Positions 41,019 through 63,299 of a stretch of 64,000 bases of DNA are shown here, in pieces. Numbering within the stretch: position 1 is the stretch's first letter; every line of letters begins with the position of its first letter. Both the position numbers and the translations under genes were made by a program. The DNA is taken from contig JAWNGF010000005.1 in the NCBI GenBank assembly GCA_037039685.1, positions 496,001 to 560,000 of the forward strand. The letters are read 5' to 3'. Origin of the DNA: Ceratobasidium sp. AG-K (Eukaryota; Basidiomycota; Agaricomycetes; Cantharellales; Ceratobasidiaceae). The notes below the pieces were generated by a model, which saw nothing but the letters and a program-made list of their open reading frames with translations, ran no database searches and was not told the DNA's origin.

Positions 41019-41023
41019 CAACA

Positions 41024-41593
41024 TGTCACGAGCCTTGCTCCTGCCAATGTTCTGTGTGCTGCGCGTTCATCACTTGTTTGATGCCTTTGTTGTTGTGTTT
41101 GTTGTTTTCCCCCTGTTGTGTGCTTGTTAGCTGCCATGTAGTTTGTTCTGATGCTTAGTCCTTTATTATTGCTTCTCCCAGCTTCTCCTTTGTACATGGG
41201 GATGATCGGCATGTGCTCTCCGCTCTGTGATTTTTCCGGAGCGCTGCGCATTGATCCCCATGTGCTCCGCACTCTTCTTCTTCTGATGTTCCTTTCTTGC
41301 TCCTTTTGGACTATTGTGCTTTCCCCATGTAGATAGTTCTTTCTTCTTCTGCTTGCTATAAAATAGGCAAGGGAAATCGTCTTGGAATCCCAAGAACGAT
41401 TTACATTGCTTGCTATAAATAGGCAAAGGAAATCGTCTTGGGCACCCAAAATGAAACGCATTACATTGTCGTTTACCCACTCTACTTCGCCCTGAGGAGG
41501 TTATCCAACATCTTTTGGAGCCTCTCAGTGATTCTCAGGCCTAGGAGCCACTCATTAATCTAAAAACACCCCTTCTCTGAGCAGGTTGTGACA
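41024..41593 (+). repeat. 5' LTR of the 41-46 kb chromovirus
   Basis: Starts TGTCACGAGCC, ends GAGCAGGTTGTGACA. It is 570 bp, about 60 bp longer than its partner, because a segment starting GCTTGCTATA is duplicated inside it (41351 and 41408). The left flank CAACA has no matching target duplication after the 3' LTR. Confidence 0.9.
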
Positions 41594-44500
41594 AAATGGC
41601 AAAGAAGTCAGGGACCCCATCAGATTCAAATGCCACTTTAAACTCACTGCCCTCTCACATTCTTTTGTTCAAACCTTCTACTGCTTGCTGCTTGGAGACA
41701 GAGACATGATTCTAGGCATGCCCTGGTTACAAGAAGTTAACCCTGACATCAATTGGTCTACTCTTGAGCTTCTTCCACGCAAATCCATGGAGTCTAGACT
41801 GGCAGAAGTGTCCCCCCTTCACAAGATTGTTCCCCCAATATTTCATGACTTCCTAAGCATTTTGGCGATGAGTTCTTTGTCAAACTGCCACCTCATCGTC
41901 CCTATGACTGAGCTCAAGCTGGAGCCTGGAAAAGACGTCCCCTGGGGGCCCATTTATCCTATGACACCCAAGGAGACTGCTGTTCTCAAGCATTATATTG
42001 ACACTGAGCTTGCTGCTGGAAAGATTAGGCCAACCACTTCACCTGGAGGTGCTCCAGTGATGTTTGTTCCCAAGAGACTTGATGACCTGAGACTAGTGAA
42101 TGATTATCGTCGCCTTAACAACAACACCATCAAAGATCACTACCCCCTGCCACGCCAAGAAGACCTTGTGGAGGAACTCAAGCATGGTAAGATATTTTTA
42201 CCAAGCTGGATTTGCACTCTGGATACAACAATGTGCGAATCAAAGAAGGAGATGAGTGGAAAACTGCTTTCAGAACGAAATATGGCTTGTTTGAGCATTG
42301 GTTATGCCTTTTGGTCTCTGCAACGCTCCTGCTGTCTTCCAATGCTGTTCTGCAACCCTGCGAAATGCCACTTCTTTGTCACATCAGTCAACTATATTGG
42401 CCTTGAGATCACTCCTGAAGTCATCTCCATGGAAAAGGATGAAGTTCAAGCGGTCAAGGAATGGCCTGCTCCTCCCACTGTGAAACAAGTTCAAGCATTC
42501 CTGGGCTTTGCCAACTTTTATCGCTGCTTTGTGCCTGATTTCAGCTGTCTAGCCCACCCTCTGAATGATCTCAGCAAGGAAGAGGTAGCCTGGCAATGGA
42601 CAGAGGCTGAGCAGCACTCATTTGATGCCATCAAGGAAGCAATTTGCATGGAACCGACTCTTGCACATCCGGATGAGAAGCTGCCCTATTTCCTGGAGAC
42701 AGATGCTTCTGAAACTGCCCTGGGTGCTGTGTTGTCACAGAGACAGGCTGATGGTCGCTTGCATCCTATTGCCTTCATATCTGCAAGCTTCTCCCCTGCT
42801 GAGCTGAACTATGACACTCATGACAAGGAACTACTGGCTCTTATTCGGTGTTTTGAACACTGGTGCATTTTCCTGGAAGGAACTGAGCAACCAATCACTG
42901 TCTTCACTGATCACAAGAACTTGGAGTATTGCAAAACTGCTAGGACATTCAACTGTTGTCATGTGCGCTGGTATCTGCTGCTTGCTTCTTACAACTTTGT
43001 GATTGCTTACAGGCCAGGTAAACAGTCCCAGAAACCGGATGCCTTGTCCAGACACACAGATCAGATGGCAGAAGAGCCTCTTCCTCAACTGATGATCAAC
43101 AAGGATCAATTTTCTGGCTTCTCTGCTATGATCAGTGGTTCCTTCCTTGAGAAACTCAAAGAGGCGCTTCTTGATGACCCTAGCCTTGACACTGTGATGT
43201 CTGCTGCCTTAGAACCTGCTAAAATGCCACATTCCATTGCTCAGAAGTTCAAAGATTACACTCTAAGCAAAGGAGTTATGTTTTACCAAGGCAGAATTGT
43301 TGTTCCAGGTGAACCTGAGCTCAAACAGGAATTGCTGTCTCATTTCCATGACACTCCAGCTGCCGGTCACCAAGGACGCGTGAGAACTGTAGAGTTGATA
43401 TCTAGGCACTACTACTGGCCTGCTATGAAGTTTCAAGTCAATCGCTATGTGGATTCCTGCGAAATCTGACAAAGGAGCAAGGGCACAGAAAAGCATGCTC
43501 CCCTTCGGCCATTACCTATTCCTGCTGGCCCTTGGGAGGATATCTCCTATGATTTCATCGTTAAACTTCCCAAGAGCAAGGGCCTTGATAGCATCCTGGT
43601 TGTTGTTGATCGCTTCTCCAAAATGGCTCATTTCATCCCCTGCAAAGAAGCATCAACAGCAGAAGACATGGCAGATATCTTCCTCAAGAATGTTTGGCGT
43701 CTCCATGACACTCCTAAGCAAACAGTTTCAGACAGAGGCTCAACTTTCAACAGCAAATTCCTTAAGGCACTGTACAAGGCGCTGCAAATTGACCCCGCAT
43801 TTTCCACAGCTTATCATCCACAAACTGACGGCCAAACTGAGTGACTGAATCAATGGCTAGAGGCTTATTTGTGTGCTTTCATCAACCACAGGCAGACAGA
43901 CTGGGTGGATTTGCTACCTCTTGCTGAGTTGTGTCACAATAACTCCAAGAGTGAAGCCACTGGATTATCTCCCTTTGAGCTTGTGTATGGCCGCTCTCCT
44001 GCCATCTCACCGAGCCTGGAACCCACACGAACGCCAGTTGCTGATGACAGGGATGCAGAACTCAGGGCAGCGATAGAAGAGGTCCAGGCAACACTGAAAT
44101 GGACTCAGGAGCACCACGAAGTGGCAGATCACTGAGTTTCTATGCCAGAATTTGCAGTTGGAGATGAAGTTTGGTTGTTAGGCACACATATCAAGTCCCA
44201 ATGCCCCAACAAGAAGCTGGATCACAAGCAATATGGTCCCTTCCCTGTTCTGTAGTGCATAGGCTCCCACGCTTACCGCTTAGAGCTTCCTGAGATGATG
44301 AAGATCCATGATGCTTTCCATGTTGCTCTGCTCTCTAAAGTAAAGCAGGACACTGATTTCAAGTGCACCTTCCAACAAGCACCCCCTGTGATCACAGAAG
44401 ATGGGGAAGAGGTTTATGATGTGGACAAACTGATTGATTGGAAGCTGGAAGATGGAATCTGGAAGTACAAGGTCCGTTGGCAAGACTATGGACCACTGGA

Positions 44501-44640
44501 CAACACTTTTGAGCCTGCTTCTGATCTTGTGCACTTGGAGGACAAACTGCGAGACTTCTACGCTAATTTTCCTGATGCCCCACGGCCTGATGATCTGGTT
44601 CCACGCACCCTACCTCAGGTTAGAAGGGCGGCCGGCAAAC
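41594..44640 (+). pseudogene. Ty3/gypsy chromovirus pol (end of PR, RT, RNase H, IN, chromodomain), defective
   Basis: The internal region starts inside the protease end (ILGMPWLQEVNPDINW); gag and most of the protease are missing. RT motifs follow (GKIRPTTSPGGAPVMFVPKR, LRLVNDYRRLNNNTIKDHYP). Around 42190-42360 frames shift, and the segment with the catalytic YxDD box is deleted. The frame resumes at [20 protein letters not shown] and [19 protein letters not shown]. RNase H (YFLETDASETALGAVLSQRQ) and the integrase zinc finger follow. The integrase core (HFIPCKEASTAEDMADIFLK; TVSDRGSTFNSKFLKALYK; YHPQTDGQTE) is broken by stops after CEI, TDGQTE, EVADH and GPFPVL. A chromodomain (YDVDKLIDWKLEDGIWKYKV, RWQDYGPLDNTFEPASDL) closes pol. 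It cannot be active. Confidence 0.9.
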
Positions 44641-44733
44641 GCAAGTCCATCGCCTCCAAAACCCGCCTTCTTGCAGCTTTTGCCTCACTCAAGCACCCCG
44701 AGCTCTGCCAAAACTCCTCTGCTGCTGTCCATC

Positions 44734-45348
44734 ATGTCCATTCATCGCCCCCACAACAACACCCCTTTCAACAGCTGGGGCAGCTGGGATACCTACTTCC
44801 ACTATATGCCAGAAGGCTTCAAAAGCGAACTAGACTCAGGCATCCCCTACCTGTGCTTTGGGCTCATTCCTACTGCTACCAAGCGTGCCTGCCTGCGCAA
44901 GGGGCCCAATCTTCTCCACCATGTGTGCTATGGCTACATTTACTACCTCAGCAGCGACAATCCGACTTCCCTGTGTGGCGGTCCCTTCTATTGCTGGCAC
45001 CATTTTATTGCATGCGATTTCCGCAATTTCCACAAGGTCATTGCTTGGTATTGTTACAAAAACTGCCCACTGGGGGTTGAAGTCTCCCTATCCAAGTACA
45101 TAGACCACTTCTACATTGGAAGCGACAAGGAATTGCATGTTTCTTTTGATCGTCTCACGCTCAGAGACAATCAAGAGCCCAATCCACCTCTCCTCCAGTA
45201 CCCAGAGCCAGAATCACTTCCAGAGGAGCCTGTGGCTAGTTGTGGATGGTTTCCAGAACCTCCATTGGCTTCTGATTGGGGCAGCAATTTCCAAGTAGGC
45301 TGTGGCAAGCAACAATGGTCCAATGACTCCACCAATGGCCCATTTTAA
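44734..45348 (+). CDS. extra ORF in env position of the 41-46 kb chromovirus
   Basis: An intact 204-codon frame, in a different frame from pol, lies between the chromodomain and the polypurine tract. It starts MSIHRPHNNTPFNSWGSW and is rich in Tyr, Trp, Cys and His (LHHVCYGYIYYLSSDNP; FYCWHHFIACDFRNFHKVIA; YIDHFYIGSDKELHVSF), with an acidic/Pro tail (EPNPPLLQYPEPESLPEEP). There is no signal peptide or clear transmembrane helix, so it is not a typical envelope protein. It is the longest uninterrupted coding piece of an otherwise broken element. Function unknown. Confidence 0.6.
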   Translation: MSIHRPHNNTPFNSWGSWDTYFHYMPEGFKSELDSGIPYLCFGLIPTATKRACLRKGPNLLHHVCYGYIYYLSSDNPTSLCGGPFYCWHHFIACDFRNFHKVIAWYCYKNCPLGVEVSLSKYIDHFYIGSDKELHVSFDRLTLRDNQEPNPPLLQYPEPESLPEEPVASCGWFPEPPLASDWGSNFQVGCGKQQWSNDSTNGPF

Positions 45349-45358
45349 GGGGGGGGAA
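45347..45358 (+). promoter_or_regulatory. polypurine tract before the 3' LTR
   Basis: AAGGGGGGGGAA directly abuts the LTR start TGTCAC, as needed for plus-strand priming. It shows that the LTR at 45359 belongs to this element. Confidence 0.8.
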
Positions 45359-45869
45359 TGTCACAAGCCTTGCTCCTGCCAATGTTCTGTGTGCTGCGTG
45401 TTCATTGCTTGTTTGATGCCTTTGTTGTTGTGTTTGTTGTTTTCCACCTGTTGTGTGCTTGTCAGCTGCCATGTAGTTTGTTCTGATGCTTACTCCTTTA
45501 TTATTGCTTCTCCCGGCTTCTCCTATGTACATGGGGATGATCGGCATGTGATCTCCGCTCTGTGATTTTTCCGGAGCGCTGCGCATTGATCCCCATGTGC
45601 TCCGTGCTCTTCTTCTTCTGATGTTCCTTTCTTGCTCCTTTTGGACTATTGTGCTTTCCCCATGTAGATAGTTCTCCCTTTCTTCTGCTTGCTATAAAAG
45701 ATGCAGGGGAAATCATCTTGGAATCCCAAGAACAATTTACCTTGTTGTTTACCCACTCTACTTCGCCCTGAGGAGGTCATGCAACATCTTTTGGAGCCTC
45801 TCAGTGATTCTCAGGCCTAGGAGCCGCTCATTAGTCTAAAAACAACCCTTCTCTGAGCAGGTTGTGACA
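45359..45869 (+). repeat. 3' LTR of the 41-46 kb chromovirus
   Basis: 511 bp, TGTCACAAGCC to GAGCAGGTTGTGACA. It differs from the 5' LTR mostly by transitions, several at former CpG sites (CACGAG/CACAAG; GCGCG/GCGTG). Confidence 0.9.
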
Positions 45870-48170
45870 AAATCTCAATGTATTAAACAAGCTGCAGCAC
45901 TACAAGTTTCCCATCAAAATCCTTCTTCACCTCTGCACACTAACTGACTTCTACCTAATTTACTCCCACCATGTCTACCTTCATCACCAACACAATGGTT
46001 CCCATCCAGCAAGATGTCTTCACCAGTGCCACCTCCTTCAAGAGGAATCTCATCCTTACCAACCTCAAGGATGGGACCAACTACCACATTGACCAGGACC
46101 TGTCTGACCACCATATTAGTGGTGACACTTGCCTGCATCCCCACTCCTTCTGTGGCTTCTCACTTGTACACTGGCACAACTGGATTGCTTACAATATATC
46201 CATCATCCAAGACCACCTCAACTGGGTCAGTGCCTACCAGCATGCCCAACTCCAAATCAAAGGTCAAGTAATTGACCTCACCACCTGACAGCACCAGAGG
46301 AACAGCAGTGGAAACCTTCCTCTCAAAAATGAAGGCATACATCCACATCAATGAAACCTACTAAAACACAGACCTCAAGAAGACCACCACCTTCTTGATC
46401 AATAGGAAGGAAGGACAACCAGCAAATTGGGCACAAGCAGCTCCAAATGTGTATAATGATAGACATGCAAATCTGTGGCTAACTAACTGGGAAGAACTAC
46501 AAACAACTGTTATCAAACAATGGACGGACCCAGCTAAGCAACTAGAGGCTGAAACTAAACTACAGAAACTCTACTGAAAGAAGACAGTATTGGAATATGT
46601 CACAGACTTCCAACTACTCCAGCGAGATGTAGGATGGAACCAAGATGCTCTCATTGCCTGCTTTGGACATGGGCTCCAACAGGCCATCAAGCAAGAACTC
46701 ATAAGGGAAGAAATGTGCAACTACAATAGCCAACACCCAAGAACCTTGCATGAATGGATGCAACTAGCCCTGCAAGGCAAGAGACTGAACCCTCCTAAAT
46801 CCCAAGACAAAGGGAAAGGAAGGGAGCAATGCAAACAACAGGGGGCATCAAAATTGGAGCACTTAGTCCAAGTCCCAAATGAAGAGAAGGAACACAGGAA
46901 GAAAGAAAACCTGTCCATCAAATGCCAGAAACCCAAGCATATGCTGAAAGACTGCTTCTCAGGGTGGACCTACACAGACAAAGGGGAACAACCAATCAAA
47001 GGAAAAGCAGCTGAAGTAACCGCCACAATTGAGGAAGTTGCTTCAACCACCTCTGAGTTGGAAAACTAGATACATGTCCTAGCACTGTGTCTAGCAATAC
47101 CCAGAAAATACCACTATCAAATGTATACTACTGCAAAGCATCAATTGAATCACCTATGGTATACACAAAGAGAGTAGGGATCATGGATAAAACACCAACA
47201 CTTATTGACTCAAGATCTACAAGGAACTTCATGGACATCAAGTATGCCAGGAGAAATAATCTCCCACTTGTGGAACTTCAAACACCAAGAAGTGTGGAAA
47301 TGATCAATGGAAAAACAGAAGAGGAAACCATCCACTTCTGTACAAAAATCACCTTCAAACTAGAAGGAAGAACCTACACACAAAAACTCTATTGCATGCC
47401 AACAGGAACCTAACCAATGATCCTGGGAATGACTTCACTAAAGGAAGTCAACCCAGACATCACATGGGCTCCTTTCCAAACTAATTGGTGAAATACCACT
47501 ATACAGGGAAAAACAGCAAAACTGGATGGACAACCAGAAGAACTCAAAGACTATACAGATGTCTTTGATGAGGAACAATATGGTAGACTGCCTGAACACT
47601 GGGAATGGGATTGCACAATTGATCTCATAGAAGGAGCTGAACTGCCAAACCCCAGAAAAGCGTACCCACTTTCTTCAAGAGAAAGAGAAGCCTTGAAACA
47701 AACCATTGAGGAAGAATTGGCTTCAGGAAGGATCAGGCCAAGCAAATATCCAATTGCTGCTGGGACCTTTTTCATAGAGAAAGGCCTAAAATCTGGACAA
47801 ACCATACCCAATCTAAGGAGTGTAGTAGACTATACAGGTGTGAATGCCATTACAAAGGCCAATCAGTACCCAGTACTGCTCCTGGAGGAACCACTCAATG
47901 TCTTGAAGAAAACGGGAGAGGAAGCCGAGGAAGAACTCTTCATTTTGACCCTTGACTTGAAGGACAGCTTCTGGAACATCAGAATAAAGGAAGGAAACAA
48001 ATGGAAAGCCGCTTTCAGAACATCAGAAGGCCTTTTCAAATATCAAGTAATGCCCTTTGGACTCAAGAATGCACTGTCTACCTTCCAAAGATACATGGAC
48101 CATATCTTCAGGGATACAAAAGGAATATCAGTTGTAGTATACTGAGATGCCATCATGGTGACCTCATTGA
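45870..48170 (+). pseudogene. second Ty3/gypsy element, gag to RT, truncated
   Basis: Begins right after the family A LTR. Gag pieces (45971-46288, 46395-46577, 46590-47069) include NWAQAAPNVYNDRHANLW and a decayed zinc knuckle (KCQKPKHMLKDC, first Cys lost). Protease remnants at 47087-47413 read LIDSRSTRNFMD, where the active site DSG is now DSR. The RT N-terminal part ([57 protein letters not shown]) runs to VVVY, then a stop and DAIMV, so the catalytic YxDD is destroyed. The element stops at about 48,170, where Tc1 sequence takes over. It is closer to the 54-63 kb element than to its left neighbour. Confidence 0.85.
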
Positions 48171-49513
48171 TGATGTCAGTGGCACCCCCAGTTGTATATC
48201 TACCACCCTGCTCACCACCCAGGACTGCAGCACCCCTCCAGCTCTTGTCCTTCATGCCTAAGGCCATTTCCCCCTCCAAGCTTGTTTCTGTGCTTGCTAA
48301 GCTTGATGCTGGCCTCTGTCATGCTGAAATCTCTAGGACTACTGGAGTTAGTGAGGGACACATCTCTAAACTGCGCAATATACACTGTCCCAACCTTCCT
48401 TGCAAACCCCCAGGCCATCCTCTCAAAGTCACCCCTGCTACAACTCACCACCTGGTTTGCTCTGTCACCAATGGCAACTCTGCAACTGCTTCCTCTGTGG
48501 CTAGGACATACAGGACAGCTGAGGGGCACACTCTTAGCCGTGAAACTGTCTGCCAGACACTCAAGGATGCTGGTTTCAAGGCCAAGAAGAAGGTTACAAA
48601 GCCCAAACTCCCTAAACATATCTGCAATGCTTAACTATCCTTTGCTCATGCCCACTGCCACTGGACTGTCAAGGACTGGAAAGGGGTCATGTGGTCAGAT
48701 GAGACCAAAATCAACCGCCTAGGGTCAGATGGCCAACAATGGGTGTGGATTAGGCCTGGCCAGGAGCTTAGTGGTGCAGCTATCCAGCCCACAGCTCACT
48801 CAGGTGGAGGGTCTATTCAGATTTGGGGCTGTTTTTGTTGGGATGGGCCTGGCTATGCTACCAAGATTGAAGACACAGTTACCAAGGAGGTCTATGTGGA
48901 GATTTTGGAGGATGAGTTGATGCAGACTTTGGAGTATCATGGGAAGGAGGTGGAAGACATTATCTTCCAACAGGACAATGCTCCTGCTCACAAGTCCAAA
49001 TTGGCAACAAATTGGCTAGCTGACAATGGTTTTGAGGTCATGGAATGGCCTTCCAACTCCCCAGATCTCAATCCAATTGAAAACTTATGGGGCATCATCA
49101 AAAGGAGGCTGGGGGAGCATGAACATCCTCCAAGGGGGGTTTTGGAGCTGTGGGAAAGGTTTCAGGTGGAGTGGGAGAAGGTGGAGCCAGAGCTGTGTCA
49201 GAATCTGATCAGCAGCATGCCCAATAGGATGAGGGAGGTGATCAAGGCTAAGGGGGGGTCCATTAACTACGGATTTTGTCTGACTTTGTTATCCATGTAT
49301 GCCTTGCAAACAATTGATTGCAAAAACTTTTTTGGCAGATGTTGCATTTCTCCCCAACCACAGATCCAAACAAGGCCAAACATGACTCATTTGGTAGCCA
49401 AAAAGCACAGTGACCTTGCATATGGCAACTGGCTGACATAATCCAACACATCATCCCCCAGCTGGCCTGCACCACCTGCACATGGTTTTTGTGATTGATT
49501 TTTTGCAGCACTG
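48171..49513 (+). mobile_element. Tc1/mariner element, 5'-truncated
   Basis: The right terminal repeat is visible on the minus strand as CAGTGCTGCAAAAAATCA next to a TA at 49514-49515. It resembles the termini of the Tc1 copy at 58516-60059. No matching left terminal repeat was found near 48150-48250, and the left flank is gypsy RT while the right flank is unrelated, so the left end was lost in a rearrangement. Confidence 0.75.
48254..49264 (+). pseudogene. Tc1-family transposase (DD34E), one internal stop
   Basis: Starts MPKAISPSKLVSVLAKLDAG with an N-terminal helix-turn-helix region (HAEISRTTGVSEGHISKLRN). A stop (TAA, 48632-48634) interrupts it after KHICNA. The catalytic domain follows with WSDETKINRLG (first Asp), IFQQDNAPAHKS (second Asp) and SPDLNPIENLWG (Glu, 34 residues later), the DD34E signature of Tc1 elements, then SSMPNRMREVIKAKGGSIN. 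The normal stop after the KGGSI(K/R)Y end is lost and the frame runs on to about 49441. A cut-and-paste transposase inserting at TA; this copy is inactive. Confidence 0.9.
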
Positions 49514-49760
49514 TATATACTAACTATTGTGGCTATGCACAATAGAAAGTTGCAACAAAAGGAGAGAAAGCAAAAGTCAGAGAGAAGCAAGGACAGAACA
49601 AAGGGAGCAAGGTAAGTCCATGAAGACCAAATGGGCAAGTGAACTGGCTAGGCAGGCATGTCCTGCAGTTGTGGCTTTCATAAAAGATGCATACATGGGG
49701 AAGGCAAGCACAGAGCAACCAAAAAACAGGCAAAACAAAGAGAATTAGGTGAGGTTGTGA
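49505..49760 (+). repeat. dispersed repeat, copy 1 (paired with 52253-52460)
   Basis: The stretch containing GCAACAAAAGGAGAGAAAGC and later GGCAGGCATGTCC recurs with moderate divergence at 52253-52460. In this copy the Tc1 right end abuts it; the other copy has no Tc1. Confidence 0.7.
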
Positions 49761-51175
49761 CAGCCAGCAGAGGTGGCATTGGCATGAGAGCAGTGGCAGG
49801 CAGGAAGTCAGGGCAGGCAAAAACACATGTAACAAACTGTGCACAAATCTTTGACATGTCTTTGTACCTGTAGTTCTGAGCAGAGCAAGGAGGCTGTAAA
49901 TGGAGTGGTTAACAGGTCCAATAGGGCTGATTACCTGCTCACCATAGGGATTTTGGGGGTTATGACTGCAACTTGCAGTGCTCCTCCAACCTGGGAGCTG
50001 CCCATTGCACAATTTGAGTTACAAGTGACAAGCAAACAACTCCATGGATGGAGCATGGCCATCATGTTTGATGCAAATGCTGACATCAGATACTAAGACA
50101 ATATATGAGGGTGGATACTGTTGTGAACTTGCACAGGGCTCTGGGATGGTTGGCACCATGACAAAGCATGGAGTGACACACTAGCCTACTTAGTGTAAAC
50201 ACACTAGGCACAATATCACACATTCATAGCATGGGAGGAACTGCAGGAGGAACTACAGATATACAAGAGCTAATAAGACTAATGTAAGTGTATGTACATT
50301 GCTATAGGATAACACCTTGTTCAGTCATAGTCTTTCCCTTCTGTTTTCCCCTTGCTGTGGCCCTCACCTTGCTCCTTGTCAAGCAAACCAGGCCCCAGTA
50401 TTTTACAAGGCCTGCCTTGCATAGCTGTCCAGGGATGCCATTGCCTGAATGCTGTATGGTGCCAGACCGTGTTGTTGCTTAGTAACAATCAAGCACACAA
50501 AGAAAAATGCATGTTCAATGTTAACACTTGTGGCAGAGCACTAGTGCAGATTGGAGTTGTGTCAACAATCTGCTCAAAACACAATGGCCAGTTATACATA
50601 CCTTGTGTACTAAGAACACCCAGTGCCATTGGGGTAAGTCTGTCCCAGTCACTTCTAGCCATCTTCTGGGCATGCCACCATACCAGCATTGATGGGTAGT
50701 GGCCAACTGCTTGATCAATTGACAGCAGTTTTAGGTTACATGGGATGATGATTATGATGGGTTTAGTCAAAATATGTTGGTTGGTGTACTGTGGACAAAC
50801 TCATGGATGCTCAAAGAATCAGGACATCATGACTGTGAGTCTATCAAAAAGATCTGGTTGACTAATTTCTGTCAACAAAAGAGTCAGTTGGACAGATACA
50901 ACATAGTCAAACAACATACCCAGTGCATGAACTGCAATCTGGGGCTGCCTGCTTGTCACTAGCATTTCTGCTTTGGGGTCAGTAATGCTTTTTCCGGCAC
51001 AACAAAGTGATTTTGATGGTGTTGTCAATCCACTCCGACTCCCACCCACCACCTTTAGGTAATGTGCATACATAGAGCATCAGCAAGAAGGACCCAGCTA
51101 TATAGGATTTTCAAATCCTATAGATCTACTTGCCAGCCTCACTCTCTGTGAGCTGGTGTATAGCAACTTCCCTTG
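49761..51175. other. unclassified repeat island DNA
   Basis: Only short ORFs without domains; CpG-poor. No terminal repeats or RNA genes recognised. Confidence 0.35.
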
Positions 51176-51177
51176 TA

Positions 51178-51870
51178 CTCAGGGTCCCAGAAAGTATTGG
51201 AACAAGCTAAATGCACACATGCTACTGCACATGGTGTCCAGAGGGCTTAGGTTCTGTAATGAGAGTAGTAGACAAAGTAGGCCTGGTTATCTTCCAGGTA
51301 CTTGGAGAGGAAATAAGGTAGTTAAGCCCATGTAGGGGCAGAGGAAGCAAAATTGCATTTTTTCCAGGTCAACAACCACAAGGAGTTTCAGAAAGTGGTT
51401 ATAATAAACATCACGCCCATGTATGTTCTGAGAAACTTTGAATATTGTTGTGAAAGCTGAAGTGGCATGGTTGTCAAGATAAAGTGAATTTAAGATTGTC
51501 AATTCCCTAGTATCTACATATGAATCCCATGTGAAACGGCCAAAACACAGCACAATGTGTTTGCCATAGCTCACTAACCAAGTCATTTCAGTGATGACAT
51601 TAATAATCAAAGTTTCTCAGAATGTATATGTGCATGATATTTACTATTACAACTTTCTGAAACTCCTTGTGGTTGTTGACCTGGAAAAAATGCGATTTTG
51701 CTTCCTCTACCCCTACCTGGGCTTAACTACCTTATTTCCTCTCTAAGTACCTGTAAGATAACCAGGCCTGCTTTGTCTACAACTCTCATTATGAAAACTA
51801 AACCCTCTGGACAGCATGTGTGGCAGTGTATGCACATTTATCTTGTTCCAATACTTTCTGGGACCCTGAG
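51178..51870. mobile_element. foldback MITE of 693 bp with TA target duplication
   Basis: The two arms, about 51178-51440 and 51605-51870, are inverted copies over about 260 bp with few differences; the outer 29 bp, beginning CTCAGGGTCCCAGAAAGTAT, match exactly. TA flanks both ends (51176-51177 and 51871-51872). There is no coding capacity. The TA target and the AGAAAGTATTGGAAC terminus suggest mobilisation by a Tc1/mariner-type transposase. Confidence 0.9.
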
Positions 51871-52252
51871 TACATAGCACTCCATGGTGCTCCATAGCCT
51901 GCCATAGATTAGGTTTTAAAATCACCTAAAATGGGCAAGGAACACATTCAAGTGATGCAATGGGCTTATGCTATGCCCTGTGCACTGTGATCAAGGTCAG
52001 TCAAGCTCAAATAACCACAGAAAAACACTTCTCAAGCTGGCAAATGGTACCAAGGGAGAAAGTGCTAAGGCCCCCTCTGGTCACAACCCTAGCCAGACCT
52101 GATCACACTGAGGGTCAATCAGGGGATGAGAACAGTGGTTGGGACAACAACAAGGGTCAAGGGATGGAAGTTAGACCTTGACTAAGTAGTCACACAGGTG
52201 GATAGGAAAAACAACAAGAGCACAAGTATTGCCTCCACAAGACTTGTGTTGC

Positions 52253-52460
52253 TGGTATGTATACTATCTAATGTGGCAGTGTACAATAGAGAGTAGCAAC
52301 AAAAGGAGAGAAAGCAAGAGTCACCACAAAGCAGGAACAGAACAAAGGAAACAAAGTAAGTCCATGGAGACCAAGGAGAAGAGGAGGCAGGCCAGGCAGG
52401 CATGTCCCATGGTCATGGCTTACATAAAAGGCACATACATGGGCAAGGTGATCACAACAA
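52253..52460 (+). repeat. dispersed repeat, copy 2
   Basis: Homologous to 49505-49760 (shared GCAACAAAAGGAGAGAAAGC; GGCAGGCATGTCC). Its left flank lacks Tc1 sequence, so it may show what the first copy looked like before rearrangement. Confidence 0.7.
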
Positions 52461-52499
52461 GACCAAACCTGTTGCAACCCTCTATGCCCATTGACTGAT

Positions 52500-53008
52500 G
52501 ACCATGTCTGTTCACACCTTATGGGCCTTCAGCTGCCTTTAGAGGTTCTGTACCAAATGCTAAGTTGCTAGTGCAACCCCAGCAACTATATGACAATGGC
52601 CTGGGGCCCACTTTAAGTTCATATGATGGCCTAAAGAGCTAGTGACTTAGTTGCACTTGCAGGGAGAGATGACATGGAAAAGCAAGCTTGAGTAAGTCCA
52701 TGCTTGCAAGACAGTATATATAGTCAGAGGCATAAATGCCTCAAAGTTATAGGATACATATTGTGGCCAATCAGATGCCATGCTCAGTCAGCAAATTGCA
52801 AAGACCTTCTATATATAATTTCTAGAAGGTTGATCTTTCAAATGGAAGGATCCAGAAGACAGTGCAGCCATGTGGGCCATGGTGACACATCATCCATACA
52901 CCTCCCAAAATGAGGAAGTGGGCCACATCTATATACATTGGATGCTTAAGGCACAAAGATTCCAAGTCAGCAGGCAGAGTCCATGGGTGTCATGGACGGG
53001 TCACAACT
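52500..53008 (-). repeat. probable 3' LTR of the oldest gypsy element
   Basis: The right end, ATGGACGGGTCACAAC, is followed by TTTGCCCCCCCTTTAGG, which on the minus strand is a polypurine tract next to an LTR. The segment has TATA-like ATATATAG and the expected size. The far end was not located precisely, and the 5' partner lies outside the window. Confidence 0.45.
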
Positions 53009-53642
53009 TTGCCCCCCCTTTAGGTCAGGCATAGGGGACCACATGTGACTATGTCTGTGGGATCCATTCTTTGATTGCAACCCATCCTTCCTGTTCCACT
53101 ACAGTATGCATATCCTCATTCAGTTGCTTGTTCCAGGCATCCCAGATTGCTTGATCAAAGTCCTGCTTGCATTGTATCAACTGCTGGAGCACTCAACTAT
53201 ATTTGCACTGATGTTTGGTGAGTGCAGTTGGTTTGTGGTTGACCCATTCTTGTTGGTACATGTTGCACAAATGTTCAAGTCCCCAGGGGGATAGCACCCC
53301 TTGTTGGACAGCCTCATAGGCTTCCAGGACTTGGTCCTTGCATGGCATGCAGTCTCAGGCTGGTGCTGGGGGCTTGTTTTTGAGGTCCCACTTGGCCTCA
53401 GCAAGGAGCTGTGTGATCTGTGCCCATGCCCATGCCACTGCTTTGTTGAATTGGCGCTCCAGGAGGAGGGGGCCTGCAGGGATCTCTTCTGGGGGGGACA
53501 AGTCATTGCCTGTTGGGGAGGGGACAGCGAGCATGGGTGCAGGGGGGGTCCCAGAGAATGTCTGCATAGGAAGGTTGGCTGGAGGGAGCTCCCCAAAAAG
53601 GGGCTGGGCAGGGTTTGCAGCGGGGCAGGGTGTCCAGGTTGT

Positions 53643-54206
53643 TCAACTACTTTTGGCCTGCTCAACTGCAGGCCACTCATTGTATGCATCTGTAGTTGTC
53701 AGGGGCCATGAGTAGTTGTCCAAGATGAAGGGGTTTGGCATACCTGGTTTGGGTTTTGGGATATTAATATCCCAGCCAGACTCTGTGTCAAGCTCTGTCT
53801 GCATCCAGGCAACCCCATCCTCCCATTGTCCAGCCTTGACTTGGAGGCAGGGGTTGTCAACCCTCTTCCACCATCTGTCTGCCTGCCACTTGTACCCTGT
53901 CTCCATGTTCCAGGTGTCACTGCTTTTGAGGACCATGCTGTGGATAGTATGGGCAACAAAGCCCTGGCAGGTGTAGAGTTTGTGCTGCATGATTGCATCT
54001 TTGTTGAGGGGTTTGGCTTCTGGATTGCCAACCGATAGGAGCACCCCATAGTTGGGGTGCTGAATCAACTTGTGGTCTTCAACCCACCTGAGGGGTCCTT
54101 GTGCCTGGATGGGGATATACCCAAGTCCACAGCTGGTGTCAAGGACCTCAGCAAGTTCCTTGGCCTCTTGGAAGGTCCAGGGCACAGTCTTGTGGTTGTA
54201 GACCAT
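53643..54206 (-). CDS. extra 3' ORF of the oldest gypsy element
   Basis: 187 codons without a stop, in an element whose integrase is already broken. Aromatic-rich and hydrophilic, with a CQG motif (LYTCQGFVAHTIH), a GYKWQADRWW stretch and a Pro-rich PKPKPGMPNP run. The 3' ORF of the younger element shares the (Y/F)xCQGxxA motif and a GYK turn, which suggests a common origin. No known domain; function unknown. Confidence 0.5.
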   Translation of the reverse strand: MVYNHKTVPWTFQEAKELAEVLDTSCGLGYIPIQAQGPLRWVEDHKLIQHPNYGVLLSVGNPEAKPLNKDAIMQHKLYTCQGFVAHTIHSMVLKSSDTWNMETGYKWQADRWWKRVDNPCLQVKAGQWEDGVAWMQTELDTESGWDINIPKPKPGMPNPFILDNYSWPLTTTDAYNEWPAVEQAKSS

Positions 54207-54530
54207 GTATTTGCCAGGGCCAGCAAGTCAGAAGGCACAGTCAAAGGCCATAGTAGAGGCATTGGCCCAGCAGGTGGTGTGCATGGTGGCATTGGAGATG
54301 TGGGTGGCAGGCATTTTTTAGTTAAAGAAGTTTGTTGGGAGCAGTTTGCCTCTGTTGAAACAGTGATATATTCTTCCCTGGTCCATTTGGGGTTCTTTTC
54401 AAAGACATCTTAAAAAGTGATTTTGCCAGTTGTTCAATTGATATGGTTGTTATGCCAAAACCCAGCTATTGGTAGCCATTTGGCCCAGTTGTCTTGGTTG
54501 TAGTTGCAGCAGATTCTCAGGAAGCTGTCG

Positions 54531-54535
54531 TAAGC
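54531..54535. repeat. target site duplication GAAGC, left copy
   Basis: GAAGC immediately before the LTR start TGTCGTAAGC; the same 5 bp follow the other LTR at 63295-63299. Confidence 0.92.
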
Positions 54536-54982
54536 TTCTTCTTGGTGGCTATGAGACAAGCCGCAATGGAGAGTGGACGGCACTAAGACCTAAGCAACCT
54601 CTTGAACCGCAACACACTTAAGTGTCTGTAGGCACTTGAGGGTAGGGGTGGTTCAAAGTGTCACTCAAAAGGGATGTTTGACAAGACAAAACAAGCTGGG
54701 GTTGACCTGGCTTGTTAGTCCTCTATATATATTCAAGAAGAGGGCAAGTCATACAAGGCACAGCCACATGAGTCAAAGCAGTCTACCAATCAGGAGTGTC
54801 CGTATGAGTCATGCTGTATGAACAGACATGACTTGTGCAAAGCACAGCCGCATTACACAATGTAACAGGAAAACCACAAGGAGGTGGCAACACGGCGGGA
54901 AAAGAGAAAAAAAACATAACACACAGTCACAAGACAGGGCGGGACGCAGACGAGTCCGATGGAGTGAGCAAGGCTCACGACA
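54536..54982 (-). repeat. 3' LTR of the 8.8-kb gypsy element
   Basis: 447 bp, aligning along its whole length with 62838-63294 (about 95% by eye). Ends are TG...CA (TGTCGTAAGC / CACGACA). It contains a TATA-like CTATATATAT at about 54722. On the minus strand a polypurine tract AAGGGGGGAG lies just before it. Confidence 0.93.
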
Positions 54983-55027
54983 TTACTCCCCCCTTAAGGT
55001 CCATGAAGGGAACCTGAGGGGACTCGG

Positions 55028-55791
55028 CTACTGCACCCAGCAGTCTTTGTTGGCCTTTTCTACCAGGTTGTCCAGGTTGTCCTCCTTCTCCTCCGTCAGA
55101 TCTATGGGGTTGAACATGGTGTTACCTGGTTTGTTGCAGTGCCCCTCCCATTTCTCCCACGTCTTGTTGTTGGTCCAGTTGCCCTTGGACCAGTCCATCA
55201 CCCTCTCCTGCTCCTCCACATGGTCCTTTGACCATTGTCGCACGTCCGGCTCGACTTCCGTCCACTGCAACACATCTGTCTCCTTCTCCTGCCGCCAAAA
55301 CGGCTTCCACTCAAATCCCTCCCTCTGGTATCTTCCCGCTCCATCCTCCAATCCGCCAGGTCCACCTCAAAGTTCTTGTCCCAGGCGTCACACCAGCAAG
55401 GCCTCAAAGATGGAGTATGGCCTTTGTATCCGGGGACCCACTTGCTGCTATAGGCCCCTTCTTGGCCCCATTTGACCACTCCAAGCATGTGTGTTGACAG
55501 TAGCCCAACTTCTGACACCTGGAAGGCTGCACATCCTTGGCATACAAAGATGTCCTTTCATTGCAGCTGCATCCGTGTTGGCCACTTTTTTCCCACCCAT
55601 TGGAATTTGCCCAAGTCTGAGTGGAGAATGTTGTCGGAGGCGCGGAATGGCATGTGCCCGGGGCCTTGCTGGGATTGCTTGAAGACATAGAGGGCGGCTC
55701 CCGCGTCAAGGATATGCGCCGTGTGAAAGGCCGGTCCTTTGAGGATGCAGATGAGGTTGTTGGTGATGGTCGAGCGGGTGACAGCAGGCAT
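55028..55791 (-). pseudogene. extra 3' ORF of the 8.8-kb gypsy element
   Basis: Starts MPAVTRSTITNNLICILKGP between the chromodomain and the 3' LTR. It reads HTAHILDAGAALYVFKQSQQ, then a TGA where CGA is likely original, then KDIFVCQGCAAFQVSEVGLL, WVPGYKGHTPSLRPCWCDAW and NFEVDLADWRMERED. A frameshift at about 55330 leads to EWKPFWRQEKETDVLQWTEV and a charged Trp-rich tail (KGNWTNNKTWEKWEGHCN). No signal peptide or membrane helix. The FVCQG motif recalls YTCQG of the older element's 3' ORF. Function unknown. Confidence 0.6.
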
Positions 55792-55929
55792 TGTAAGGAG
55801 CAAAAGAGGTTAAGTGCATGTAGAGAGTAAAGCAAGTTTGAAAGTGAGCAAGTTTTGCAAGTTGAGTAGTTTTTGTGTTGGGCTCTCCCTCTAATACCTC
55901 CTGGTTTGTAGTTTGAGGGTGTTGGTGCT

Positions 55930-58500
55930 CCTGGGAAATCTTTTAGGAACTTCCTCATGATTCCTCCGAGGTGTCCAAAATCTTCTGCCTGTTGTTCTGT
56001 GCCTCCCTTAGCATTGTACCCCTTCCATCTGACCCTATAGAAAAGTCCTTCCTTTGGCATTTTCCAGTTCACAATTTTTTCCACTTTGTATTCTTCCTCT
56101 CCTTCTGTTTTCACCGGTGGGGGTTGGGGTTGGTTTCTTTGGAAATTATTGTCCTCATTGTAAGGGCTAAGCAGGTTGTTATGGAAAACAGCGTGTATCT
56201 TTATTGTCTTCGGAAGATCCAATTTGAAGGTGTGGCTAGAGACAACCTTTTTGACTTTGAACGGGCCATGTTTTTTGTTGTCAAGTTTCTTGTTGGATTG
56301 ATCCGTCTTTATGTTTTGCCCAAGTAGCCAAACCAGGTCTCCCTCCGTGTTTTTGGGTGGTTGGCTTTCCTCTGTTTTGTTTCTATGCCATTCCATGGCT
56401 GCTTTGGCTTTGTCCCACACCTTCTGCCAACTGTCTGCTTTGTTGTTTGCCTCTGGAGTGGTTGTTTCTTTTGTTGAAATATTCCAAAAGGGTTCCCTGC
56501 TGTAGACAATTTCAAAAGGAGTTTTCCCTGTGATGCTATGCCTTTGGTTATTGTAGCAGAATTCTGCAATGGGTAGAAGTCTGGCCCAATTATCCTGTTG
56601 GTGATTTACAAATGTTTGTAACCAGGCTTCTAGCCACTGGTTTATTTGTTCCGTTATTCTGTTGGTTTGGCAATGGTATGCTGTGCTGAAGTTTGGTGTG
56701 GTACTGATCTTCTCATATAGAGCTTTTAGGAATTTGCTGTTGAATGTTGTTCCCCTATCGGATACTGTACTCTGTGGAAAACCGTGAAGCTTCCATATGT
56801 TCTCCAGGAAGATCTCGGCCAATTGTTCCGCTGTTGTTGATTCTTTACAGGGTATGAAATGTGCCATGCAAGAGAATCAATCCACAACCACCAATATGCT
56901 GTCACTCCCATGTGACTTAGGGAGTTTGGTAATGAAGTCGTATGCAATTTCCTCCCATGGACCATTTGGGATTTCCGGCGGTTTCAATGGTACATGAGTT
57001 TTTGTTCCCTTTGCCCTCTGGCATTGTTTGCATGAGTCTATGTATTTGTTCACCATGGACTTTAATCATGGCCAGTAGTATCTTCTTGAGATAAGTTCCA
57101 GTGTGTGTGCGTGTCCTTGGTGACTGGTGACTGGTGAGTCATAGTGTATTCTCATGATTTTCAACCTTATGTCCTTGTCTTCCGGGACATAGATTCTCCC
57201 ATTGAACCAGAGGAGGTTTTCTTCAAAATTGTACTTCTTGATTCCTTGTTGCACTGATTTTGGTAGGTCCTCCTTCTTTTTGCATAGTTCTATGATTTGG
57301 CTAATGCTTTTGTCTTCCGTTTGTACTTCTCTGATGTCCGCAATGATATTGAACTTCATGTCTCCAGAGAACCCCTTGAATTGTTCCTCCTTGATCATTA
57401 CTTGTTCTGCTGTTGGAATGTTGCTATGGTCGCTCCTTCTGGATAGTAGATCTGGTTTAGTTGAAAGGATGCCTGGTTGGTACACAATTTCGAAGTTGTA
57501 GGATGCCAGAATCTGGTGCCAGCAAGCGTGGCGTCTGTTGAAGGTTGTTGCCTTCTTCCAATATTGCAGATTTCAGTGATTGGTGTAGATCGTGATCGGT
57601 TCCTTTGTTCCTTCCAGGTGCAAACGCCAGTGTTTGAGTGCTTCTATGATTGCCATGAGTTCCTTGTCATGCACATTGTAATTCAATTGTGCTTGATTGA
57701 AGGATTTTGATAGGAAAGCAGTTGGATGTAAGAATCTGTCTTCCTGTTTCTGCAAAAGGATGGTGCCCATGGCCACACTGCTTGCGTCGGTCTCCAAGAT
57801 GTAAGGTTTTTCTGGGTCAGGATGTCGCAATAAAGGTTCCTTGCAAATCTCTGTTTTTAAATTATCAAACACTTCTGGTTGTTCCATCTCCCATTTCCAT
57901 TTTTGGTCTTTTCTGGTCAGGATTGTCAAGGGCTTGGCCAATCCACTGAAGTTTGGAACAAATCACCTGTAGAAATTGGCAAATCCTAAGAATGCTTGCA
58001 CCTGCTTGACTGTTCTCAGCTCCTTCCATTCTTTAATTGCTTTGACCTTCTCTTCCTGCATCAATATTCCCTCTTTGCTGATGTTGATGCCTGTATATAC
58101 TAGTTTCTTCACAAAGAATTTGCACTTGGGAAGTTTTGCAAATAGGTTGTTGTCCAGGAGGATTTTGAGAACTTTTTGTACATCTTCAACGTGTTGGCTC
58201 CAATCTTTAGAGAAGATTAATATGTCATTGATGTACACAATGACACAGATATCAATAAGGTCATGGAAGATATGGTTCATGTATCGTTGAAATGTTGCTG
58301 GGGCGTTCTTCAGTCCAAAGGGCATGACAATGTACTCAAATAATCCTTCCTTGGTTCGGAATGCCGTTTTCCACTCATTGCCTTCCTTTATTCTGATGTT
58401 GTTGAATCCCATGCGTAAGTCTATCTTTGAGAAGATCTTTGCATCCTTGATTTTGTCCAGAAGATCCTCCATAAGTGGCATAGGAAATCAATTGTCTCTG
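55930..58500 (-). pseudogene. gypsy pol: RT, RNase H, integrase, chromodomain (after the Tc1 insertion point)
   Basis: RT reads [39 protein letters not shown], then [12 protein letters not shown], where the first Asp of the YxDD box is Asn. RNase H (YILETDASSVAMGTILLQKQ) and the integrase zinc finger (SPVTSHQGHAHTLELISRRY) follow, then the core (STVSDRGTTFNSKFLKALYE; INQWLEAWLQTFVNHQQDNW) and a GPFKVKKVVSSHTFKLDLP module. The chromodomain reads YKVEKIVNWKMPKEGLFYRV, RWKGYNAKGGTEQQAEDFGH. Stops occur after NITRDN, ANFYR, YTNH and RYYWP, mostly TGA at positions where CGA (Arg) is expected; a frameshift lies near 56870. Inactive. Confidence 0.9.
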
Positions 58501-58515
58501 GTGATTTTGTTCATA

Positions 58516-60059: not shown

Positions 60060-60061
60060 TA

Positions 60062-60816
60062 GGACCAAAGTGTTGGACCAATCTGAGTTCCCTAGGTCCT
60101 TCTGGGTTCTTGGTGTCTTGCCCTTATTTGACAAAGAAAGTTGCTGCGGCTACTGGCGATTTGCTTGGACAGATCTTTCCGGCAGCTAATTCTTCATCAA
60201 GGTACTTCCTAAGGGCAATAGATTCCGCAAGAGATAAGGGGATGGGCCTAGCTGGTTTAGGAAGTTCTGCTCCTTCCACCAAGTCAATGGAACAGTTGTA
60301 GGGTCAATGGTCTGGAATACGTTTGAATTTTTCTTCACTGAAGACCCCTGCAAAGTCTTTGAATTCTTCTGGTATGTCTTCTATTTCGGCAATTCTTCCA
60401 ATAATAGACTCCAGTCGCCATGAGATAGTTTTCAAGTGCCAATCGATGATAGGGTTGGCTTCTTCCAGCCATCCTAGTCCCAAGATTATGTCTGTTTCTC
60501 CTGTTGGCATAGCAGAGAAACTTTGTTGGAATTCTTTCCCTTTGAGGTCAAATTTTAGGTCAGCCTTGAAGCGAATTTGGTGTGCAAGTTCTTTTCCTTG
60601 GATTCCAATAACCTTCCATGGAGTTGAGAGTTCTTTTAGTGCAATGTTGTTTCTTTGGGCCCATGTGATGTCAATGAAGTTTTTTGAGGCTCCTGAATTG
60701 ATCAGAGTGGCTACAGGTGCTGTGATTCCAGTAATGTTGGTGTAAACAATTGTTGATTCTCTGGTTGCTCTAAGGTACATTGTATCCATTACTGGTTCCT
60801 TGGTCTCTCCACACAC
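60062..60816 (-). pseudogene. gypsy pol: protease and RT start (before the Tc1 insertion point)
   Basis: An aspartic protease domain with TLINSGASKNFIDITWAQRN, in which the catalytic DSG is NSG, and DIILGLGWLEEANPIIDWH. The RT lead-in follows: IPEEFKDFAGVFSEEKF, a stop, then YNCSIDLVEGAELPKPARPI, LDEELAAGKICPSKSPVAAA, a second stop after TFFVK, and PRELRLVQHFGP up to the Tc1 junction. The Asp-to-Asn change is a G-to-A transition. Confidence 0.9.
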
Positions 60817-60902
60817 AGTTAGAGGGAGACCCTGTCTTTTCCCAATTCTGGTTCATCCTCAATTTTTCCTTCTTGTCCTTTTAGTCCTGGTTCTTCCTTC
60901 TT

Positions 60903-62815: not shown

Positions 62816-62837
62816 GATTGATAAGCTTGTTTTGTAA

Positions 62838-63294
62838 TGTCGTAAGCTTCTTCTTGGTGGCTATGAGACAAGCTGCAATGGAGAGTGGACGGCACTAAGA
62901 CCTAAGCGACCTCTTGAACCGCAACACACTTAAGTGTCTGTAGGCACTTGAGGGTAGGGGTGGTTCAAAGTGTCACTCAGAAGGGATGTTTGACGAGACA
63001 AAACAAGCTGGGGTTTACCCGGCTTGTTAGTCCTCTATATATATTCAAGAAGAGGGCAAGTCATACAAGGTGCAGCCACATGAGTCAAAGCAGTCAACCA
63101 ATCAGGAGTGTCTGTATGAGTCATGCTGTATGAACAGACATGACTTGTGCAAAGCACACCTGCGTTACACAATGTAACAGGAAAACCACACGGAGGTGGC
63201 AACGCTGTGGGAAAAGAGAAACAAAACATAACACACAGTCACAAGACAGGGCAAGACGCAGACAAGTCCAATGGAGTGAGCAAGGCCCACAACA
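62838..63294 (-). repeat. 5' LTR of the 8.8-kb gypsy element
   Basis: 457 bp, TGTCGTAAGC to CCCACAACA, partner of 54536-54982. The same TATA-like CTATATATAT lies at about 63036. Confidence 0.93.
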
Positions 63295-63299
63295 GAAGC
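63295..63299. repeat. target site duplication GAAGC, right copy
   Basis: GAAGC directly after the LTR end, matching 54531-54535. Confidence 0.92.

What the first reader, a model, noticed from the sequence alone, without database searches (positions are those of the whole stretch)
44734..55791. Extra ORFs in env position in all three gypsy elements with a readable 3' end
Each element has an additional frame between integrase/chromodomain and the polypurine tract: 44734-45348 (+), 53643-54206 (-) and 55028-55791 (-). Two of these have stayed open for 187-204 codons although the pol genes beside them are full of stops. They lack signal peptides and membrane helices, so they are not standard env genes. 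The two minus-strand ones share a (Y/F)xCQGxxA motif and a GYK turn; the third is Cys/Tyr/Trp-rich with no clear similarity. Accessory ORFs are known in some plant and fungal Ty3 elements, but I cannot place these in any family.
Basis: partly seen in the sequence, partly recalled or inferred. Interest (0 to 1): 0.75.

Follow-up and report, generated by a model that had tools for sequence, protein, structure and literature searches.

The report
Third gene in fungal gypsy retrotransposons
Large families of gypsy retrotransposons in this fungal genome carry a real, selection-maintained third gene after the integrase; two of the three copies noticed belong to one new protein family with relatives in Ceratobasidium, it does not look like an envelope, and its function is unknown.

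Summary
The extra frames are real genes (ORF3), seen here as decayed copies. Own-genome searches scored 150 matches for the 53643 ORF (family A, 202 candidates), 150 for the 55028 ORF (B, 683 candidates) and 92, many of them fragments, for the 44734 ORF (C). ORF3 starts after the chromodomain and ends about 30 bases before, or at, the polypurine tract. Median dN/dS is 0.20 (A, 13 copies) and 0.08-0.13 (B, 9 copies); the overlapping pol frame shows no amino-acid constraint. Of 150 A-lineage integrase/chromodomain matches, 130 have ORF3 downstream. A and B share a core domain (HHalign 91-93%); a family-A profile hits 32 of 120 listed pol-like proteins, all Ceratobasidium sp. AG-Ba, none reversed. 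C is unlinked. The 'CQG' motif is a CpG-decayed 'CRGC' that AG-Ba lacks. No Pfam or NCBIfam match reached its cut-off; no membrane helix was seen; AlphaFold models failed. Best reading: an intracellular accessory protein made from a separate mRNA, perhaps working like CERV of C. elegans Cer1 (inferred). New variant of a known kind.

The parts
   Evidence: translation with stops shown; 58-63% identity to the better-matching other full-length genomic copies of the 194-residue piece; hit by a Ceratobasidium ORF3 at E=0.0016
53646..54227 (-). open 194-codon piece of family A ORF3 (P0001) holding the conserved core domain
55028..55791 (-). family B ORF3, decayed by one stop codon and one frameshift; 16 of 20 fetched B loci read 254 codons from the homologous start
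55404..56876 (-). integrase C-terminus, SH3_Tf2-1 and chromodomain of the B element, with the pol frame running on into ORF3
54526..54982 (-). 3' LTR of the B element (457 bp)
62838..63294 (-). 5' LTR of the B element; 24 of 457 positions differ from the 3' LTR
54983..55000 (-). polypurine-tract region of the B element, next to the 3' LTR
   Evidence: sequence read
54301..54525 (-). integrase remnant of the A element downstream of the B insertion; its other part lies at 63295 and beyond, with target duplication GCTTC
44734..45348 (+). family C ORF3: 204 codons plus stop, ending at the polypurine tract; unrelated to A and B at HHalign sensitivity
44259..45080 (+). C-element pol end (SH3_Tf2-1, chromodomain) with the pol frame running on through the first half of ORF C
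41592..43469 (+). 625-codon open pol frame of the C element
45356..45878 (+). 3' LTR region of the C element, ends approximate (its pair is at about 41021-41602; 26 of 510 aligned positions differ)

Best explanation
The ORFs are the third gene (ORF3) of chromodomain-bearing Ty3/gypsy elements, lying between the chromodomain and the polypurine tract. Families A and B encode one new protein family: an N-terminal core domain of about 80-100 residues followed by a Trp- and charge-rich C-terminal region; C is a separate gene in the same slot. Shown: copy number, position, purifying selection in A and B, homology A-B and A-AG-Ba, no membrane features. Inferred: the protein starts at its own ATG, probably from a spliced or subgenomic mRNA, because pol terminates hundreds of bases downstream of that ATG, so reinitiation after pol is unlikely. 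Inferred: it works inside the cell as a non-enzymatic binding protein for the element's own RNA or for host factors, for example RNA export or escape from silencing; the closest tested precedent is CERV of Cer1. Confidence by part: real selected gene (A, B) about 0.95; intracellular accessory protein rather than envelope about 0.85; RNA-export or expression role about 0.3. The score below is for the statement up to 'works inside the cell as an accessory protein'.
For: Matches: 150 scored for A, 150 for B, 92 (with fragments) for C. Selection, B: median dN/dS 0.08 in the pol overlap (36 pairs) and 0.13 beyond it (32 of 36 pairs gave a value), against 1.94 for the pol frame in the same overlap (9 copies). 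A: 0.20 (13 copies, 77 of 78 pairs), 0.19 for the 8 with CpG o/e above 0.6; in 5 elements with intact pol, pol 0.07, ORF3 0.17, pol frame inside ORF3 1.47. Position: 130 of 150 A-lineage matches. Homology: A-B 92.6% and 90.9%; A-AG-Ba 94.6%, E 7e-8, six comparisons with reversed profiles at most 0.6%; family-A HMM hits 32 of 120 listed pol-like proteins, best 7e-14, reversed 0; one AG-Ba ORF3 finds 95 places in this genome at E<=0.1 (20 at E<=0.001), 89 of the 95 overlapping A ORF3s. MPA or MAP starts recur in A, B and AG-Ba. Residues invariant across 8 A and AG-Ba sequences are only A, L, Y, I, P, W, K and V. CERV: PMC10309623, outline with abstract, passages and section 9.
Against: No structure: the AlphaFold2 models had mean pLDDT 44.5 and 37.3 on alignments of 3 and 2 sequences, so fold and role are untested. 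No RNA data; no common splice site or slippery heptamer was seen by eye in 8 A/B copies, so the expression route is open. B is not linked to AG-Ba by itself (HHalign 0.2%; HMM 0 of 120), and C is linked to neither. A 19-residue stretch in two of three B proteins reaches hydropathy 1.56, near usual membrane cut-offs. dS is near saturation in B (mean 1.05 in the overlap, not computable in some pairs beyond it), and L049 was not realigned after its deletion, which widens the range to 0.87. Copies are related and recombine, so pairs are not independent tests. For C the codon-position signal is weak: 1.2-1.6 times in the pol overlap, while pol-coding sequence upstream shows 1.2-1.4 times at the same positions.
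Confidence: 0.82

Rival explanations
1. Envelope-like gene: ORF3 is a diverged env whose product is membrane-bound and allows spread between cells or hyphae.
For: Env position, overlap with pol as env has in some retroviruses (recalled), and a moderately hydrophobic stretch in B.
Against: No signal-peptide-like N-terminus and no clear transmembrane helix in 11 proteins examined by hydropathy; no Pfam or NCBIfam env match.
Confidence: 0.05
2. C-terminal extension of pol: the region is made only as part of pol, by a -1 frameshift or an intron that fuses it to the integrase, acting for instance in target choice.
For: In the 8 A and B copies read, ORF3 lies in the -1 frame of pol. Gene models of Ceratobasidium sp. 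AG-Ba and one of Globodera pallida fuse chromodomain and ORF3. The pol frame stays open in ORF3 longer than in synonymous shuffles in 5 of 6 A copies (0-8 of 500 shuffles reach it; sixth 47 of 500).
Against: AG-Ba junctions differ between models, as expected of gene-finder introns. ORF3 has its own recurrent ATG start. In-frame stops about 25-33 codons before that ATG in L024, L027, L039, L040 and L043 leave little room for a shift, and no common slippery site was seen. In family C the frame relation is the other one.
Confidence: 0.13
3. Chance frame: the ORFs are open only because of base composition or overlap with pol.
For: Alternate frames of these sequences are often open.
Against: For A and B: dN/dS far below 1 in the ORF3 frame only, and for A homologues in another fungus.
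Confidence: 0.01
4. Zinc-knuckle or captured host enzyme: the CxGC motif binds metal, or the protein is a captured enzyme (dUTPase, RNase H, esterase, exonuclease), as in other retroelements.
For: Two cysteines in a CRGC motif in A and B; captured ORF3 enzymes are known in bdelloid elements (PMC5408684, abstract and outline seen).
Against: The cysteines are missing in the AG-Ba sequences aligned, no catalytic residue set is invariant there, and no Pfam or NCBIfam match reached its cut-off; best PDB match E 0.96.
Confidence: 0.05

Closest known systems
CERV of Cer1 (C. elegans Ty3/gypsy element; PMC10309623)
   Different: CERV was shown to come from a five-exon spliced mRNA and to be needed for genomic-RNA export; none of that is tested here, and sequence relationship to CERV was not tested.
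Tf2-like chromovirus elements of Ceratobasidium sp. AG-Ba (among proteins P0006-P0051)
   Same: Chromodomain pol followed by a homologous ORF3 core domain and, in 21 proteins, a MAP-type start.
   Different: Annotated as pol fusions; pol identity mostly 51-60% in the listed proteins; the CRGC motif is absent in those aligned.
[quoted passage not shown] section 5 read)
   Same: Extra ORF of unknown function in full-length fungal Ty3/gypsy elements.
   Different: The text read does not say which element, position or sequence, so identity could not be checked; the 25 genomes of its Table 1 include no Cantharellales (classification recalled).
ORF3 types of bdelloid rotifer LTR elements (PMC5408684, abstract and outline)
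   Same: Third ORFs shared among element lineages.
   Different: Those named in the abstract are env-like, GDSL esterase or DEDDy exonuclease; ORF3 here matches no Pfam family above cut-off.
Additional ORFs of plant LTR retrotransposons (Vicient and Casacuberta 2020, seen only as a reference)
   Same: ORF in env position, mostly of unknown function (as cited).
   Different: Plant elements; no sequence link tested.

Membership tests
Chromovirus (chromodomain Ty3/gypsy) | Integrase followed by SH3-like and chromodomain | tested here: met
   B element: SH3_Tf2-1 E 2.9e-14; chromodomain E 6.2e-5, 23.3 bits, below Pfam's cut-off of 25.1. C element: chromodomain E 1.8e-7, above the cut-off. The window A copy lacks this region where read; A relatives have it.
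Chromovirus (chromodomain Ty3/gypsy) | LTRs with TG...CA ends, target-site duplication, polypurine tract | tested here: met
   B element: 457-bp LTRs TG...CA, TSD GCTTC, polypurine tract.
Retroviral or errantiviral envelope | Signal peptide and transmembrane helix | tested here: not met
   Hydropathy of 11 proteins; no dedicated signal-peptide or TM predictor was run.
Retroviral or errantiviral envelope | Sequence match to a known env family | tested here: not met
   Pfam and NCBIfam; PHROGs and PADLOC were not searched.
Zinc-knuckle protein | Conserved metal ligands | tested here: not met
   Cysteines of CRGC not conserved in the two AG-Ba sequences aligned.
CERV-like RNA-export factor | Encoded by a spliced mRNA | not testable with these tools
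   No RNA data; AG-Ba introns are annotation only.
CERV-like RNA-export factor | Nuclear, needed for genomic-RNA export | not testable with these tools
   Needs experiment.
CERV-like RNA-export factor | Sequence or fold relationship to CERV | not tested
   No CERV sequence was fetched; models here are too poor to compare.
New ORF3 family (A, B, AG-Ba) | Shared core domain at the same place | tested here: met
   A-B and A-AG-Ba; B-AG-Ba direct comparison not significant.
New ORF3 family (A, B, AG-Ba) | Same for family C | tested here: not met
   HHalign at most 1.0%, reversed controls up to 0.6% (12 of 15 C sequences used).

The most novel reading that the evidence does not exclude
A previously undescribed protein family of fungal chromoviruses, made from an mRNA of its own in the way retroviral accessory genes are, acts on the element's RNA (export, translation or escape from silencing). 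In family A the pol frame is also kept free of stops for about 1 kb through ORF3 without amino-acid constraint, so that pol terminates close to the 3' end, perhaps shielding the genomic RNA from nonsense-mediated decay.
Probability: 0.25. Interest if true: 0.75.

Novelty: new variant of a known kind. Interest (0 to 1): 0.55.

Why it matters
Third genes in env position are often known only as orphan frames. Here one can be followed through well over a hundred copies in one genome and into a second fungus, is under clear purifying selection, and can be hidden from annotation because the pol frame runs over it. It gives a defined protein family, with open natural copies and a natural recombination point after the core domain, on which to test what accessory proteins do for retroelements without an envelope, in a host whose repeats bear the mark of CpG decay.

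Tried and rejected
Homology: the B ORF3 found 2 metagenome proteins, the A alignment 2 (one Globodera pallida UniRef entry, one metagenome protein); viral contigs and genome contigs gave none. Pfam and NCBIfam gave no match above cut-off; the lowest sub-cut-off value inside an ORF3 is CcdA, E 0.0044, 17.8 bits against a cut-off of 22.4, in the tail of P0006. PDB: best E 0.96. Rfam: nothing in the window at gathering level. Hairpin before the polypurine tract: a short stem differs in a compensating way between A subfamilies, but 183, 25 and 179 of 200 shuffles fold at least as well, so it is not claimed. Frameshift and splice signals: none common to 8 A/B copies and the window's C copy, read by eye. 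Shadow-frame openness: beyond shuffles in 5 of 6 A copies, but copies are related; in 3 B copies 25-66 of 500 shuffles do as well. Literature: no description of this gene in the listings of searches; the passages of Muszewska 2011 (PMC3248453) shown mention no third ORF. Host: not named by the tools; nearest named pol relatives are Ceratobasidium sp. AG-Ba, so an agaricomycete is inferred.
Full report
Observation. They are parts of decayed genes. The 53643 frame is the middle of a 422-codon reading (53049-54314, minus strand) with four internal stops. The 55028 frame holds one stop and one frameshift. The 44734 frame is open for 204 codons and ends at the polypurine tract. The pol beside it is not full of stops: it has a 625-codon open frame. 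The B element (54526-63294) is inserted into the integrase of the A element, with target duplication GCTTC and LTRs differing at 24 of 457 positions.

Genome-wide copies. The window lies in a 53.6-Mb genome of 17 contigs. Family A gave 150 scored matches of 202 candidates; family B 150 of 683 (query: the first 77 residues); family C 92 matches from 96 candidates, several of them pieces of one copy. The A and B counts are lower bounds. In A and B many matches lie in long stop-free frames; most C matches carry stops or are fragments. I fetched 20 A loci, 20 B loci, 14 C loci and 6 check loci, chosen by hand for diversity and openness, so they are not a random sample. In the A loci an open pol frame of up to 1548 codons runs on through ORF3. 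In 13 of them an open ORF3 of 350-394 codons was measured, ending about 30 bases before the G-rich tract; the window copy, of the other subfamily, reads 421 codons. In 16 of 20 B loci ORF3 reads 254 codons from the homologous start (one of these, L031, has lost the ATG), and pol stops about 385 bases inside it in most.

Association with the element. Of the 150 best matches to the A integrase-SH3-chromodomain region (150 scored of 1336 candidates), 130 have an ORF3 core match 90-680 bases downstream on the same strand (median 123; ORF3 list: 150 plus 6). I looked at 6 of the 20 misses: four encode most of ORF3 (L065; L067 and L069 in two frames; L070 the first 250 codons), L066 keeps the first 56 codons, and L068 is cut off soon after the chromodomain. 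The other 14 were not examined.

Selection. For nine B copies (eight with CpG o/e 0.61-0.77, and L016, not measured), median pairwise dN/dS is 0.08 in the part that overlaps pol and 0.13 in the rest; the pol frame in the same overlap gives 1.94. Four of 36 pairs in the rest gave no usable dS, and L049 was not realigned after a deletion, so the upper range there (0.87) is inflated; mean dS in the overlap is 1.05, near saturation. For 13 A copies the median is 0.20 (77 of 78 pairs; 0.19 in the eight with CpG o/e above 0.6). In the five elements with intact pol, pol gives 0.07, ORF3 0.17 (9 of 10 pairs each) and the pol frame inside ORF3 1.47 (8 of 10 pairs). Family C is too decayed for dN/dS; across 15 sequences transversions per site are 0.044, 0.051 and 0.080 at codon positions 1, 2 and 3. 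In the pol overlap this is 0.037, 0.053 and 0.061, and pol sequence upstream also shows its highest value at position 3 (0.136, 0.119, 0.169), so for C this is weak support.

CpG decay. CpG observed/expected, flanks included, is 0.35-0.77 in 21 B sequences and 0.01-0.41 in 15 C sequences. This can explain stops that arose from arginine codons, the change of CRGC to CQG, and the Cys/Tyr/Trp-rich look of family C. These are inferences from the substitution pattern.

Family relationships. Profile comparison of A and B gives 92.6% probability over 85 columns (90.9% with full-length A). The nearest named pol relatives are Tf2-like proteins of Ceratobasidium sp. AG-Ba, Cantharellales. Many of their annotated proteins carry a tail after the chromodomain that matches A: 94.6%, E 7e-8; six comparisons with reversed profiles gave at most 0.6%. 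A profile built from family A alone hits 32 of the 120 proteins listed, all named AG-Ba, best E 7e-14; none of the 120 reversed proteins is hit; profiles of B and C hit none. Conversely one AG-Ba tail, searched through this genome in six frames, gives 95 places at E up to 0.1, 20 of them at E up to 0.001. Of the 95, 89 overlap family-A ORF3s, including the window copy at E 0.0016; five of the other six lie just downstream of A-lineage chromodomains. B is joined to the family only through A. C (12 of 15 sequences used) is joined to neither. The search that found AG-Ba listed only the best 120 of 2819 proteins and scored a capped candidate list, so absence elsewhere is not shown.

What the protein is like. 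Across eight A and AG-Ba sequences the invariant residues are A, L, Y, I, P, W, K and V. There is no conserved Cys/His or acidic set in that alignment, which argues against a metal site or enzyme. The 11 proteins measured have pI 4.8-6.2 and 3.4-6.7% Trp and show no clear membrane helix; the highest 19-residue hydropathy mean is 1.56, in B. No Pfam or NCBIfam match reached its cut-off in ORF3; the best PDB match has E 0.96. AlphaFold2 gave mean pLDDT 44.5 and 37.3, so I make no structural claim.

How it is probably made. MPA or MAP starts recur in A, B and AG-Ba. In-frame stops lie about 25-33 codons before the ATG in L024, L027, L039, L040 and L043. Pol terminates hundreds of bases downstream of that ATG, so reinitiation after pol is unlikely; a spliced or subgenomic mRNA is the simplest route. 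This is inference. In five of six A copies the pol frame through ORF3 is open longer than in nearly all synonymous shuffles (0-8 of 500 reach it; 47 of 500 in the sixth); three B copies give 25-66 of 500. Because copies are related, this is suggestive only.

How it probably works. In family A ORF3 changes about 2.4 times faster than pol by dN/dS. This, with no membrane features and no enzyme signature, fits an intracellular binding protein. The tested precedent I found for an env-position, non-env ORF in a Ty3/gypsy element is CERV of Cer1, made from a spliced mRNA and needed for genomic-RNA export (PMC10309623; outline with abstract, passages and one results section read). I commit to an accessory protein acting inside the cell; RNA export or expression is the most likely single role, at about 0.3.

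Recombination. L012 and its near-copy L017 (97-100% to each other) resemble L015 up to about 450 bases into ORF3 (L012: 93-95% in that part) and L029 after it (86-93% within ORF3), a switch just after the core domain. This suggests exchange of the C-terminal module between elements.

Novelty. Accessory ORFs in env position are known in general, and additional ORFs of unknown function were drawn in fungal chromoviruses (PMC2864245, Figure 3 legend). I found no description of this family in the listings of the paper searches (open-licence library only; most listed papers not opened). I rate it a new variant of a known kind.

Noticed in passing
window 48146-49441 (+): Frames that look like a Tc1/mariner-type transposase interrupt a gypsy reverse transcriptase frame that ends at about 48145 (recognised by eye; no family search was run).
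   Followed up: no
G000 C5 about 30-152 kb and 549-672 kb: The part of the contig that holds this finding recurs about 519 kb away: ORF3 and pol matches come in pairs with offsets of 519.0-519.4 kb; in one pair the open frames differ (173 and 279 aa). A large segmental duplication or an assembly matter.
   Followed up: no
L012 and L017 against L015 and L029, about 450 bases into ORF3: Natural recombinants between ORF3 subfamilies with the switch just after the core domain.
   Followed up: partly
between ORF3 stop and polypurine tract in A copies: Possible small stem-loop: the stem differs between subfamilies in a compensating way around a loop that looks unchanged; folding support is weak.
   Followed up: partly
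P0004 (UniRef A0A183CTW7, Globodera pallida): A protein annotated from a potato cyst nematode joins a chromodomain to a family-A ORF3 core; fungal contamination of that assembly seems likelier than transfer, but this was not tested.
   Followed up: partly
window 27326-28106: Tandem repeats spaced about 160-171 bases (families D2 and D4).
   Followed up: no
family C places on contigs C1, C7, C8, C12, C13, C16: Many CpG-poor family C copies look crowded into a few regions, as heterochromatin or centromeres might be (by eye; no test).
   Followed up: no
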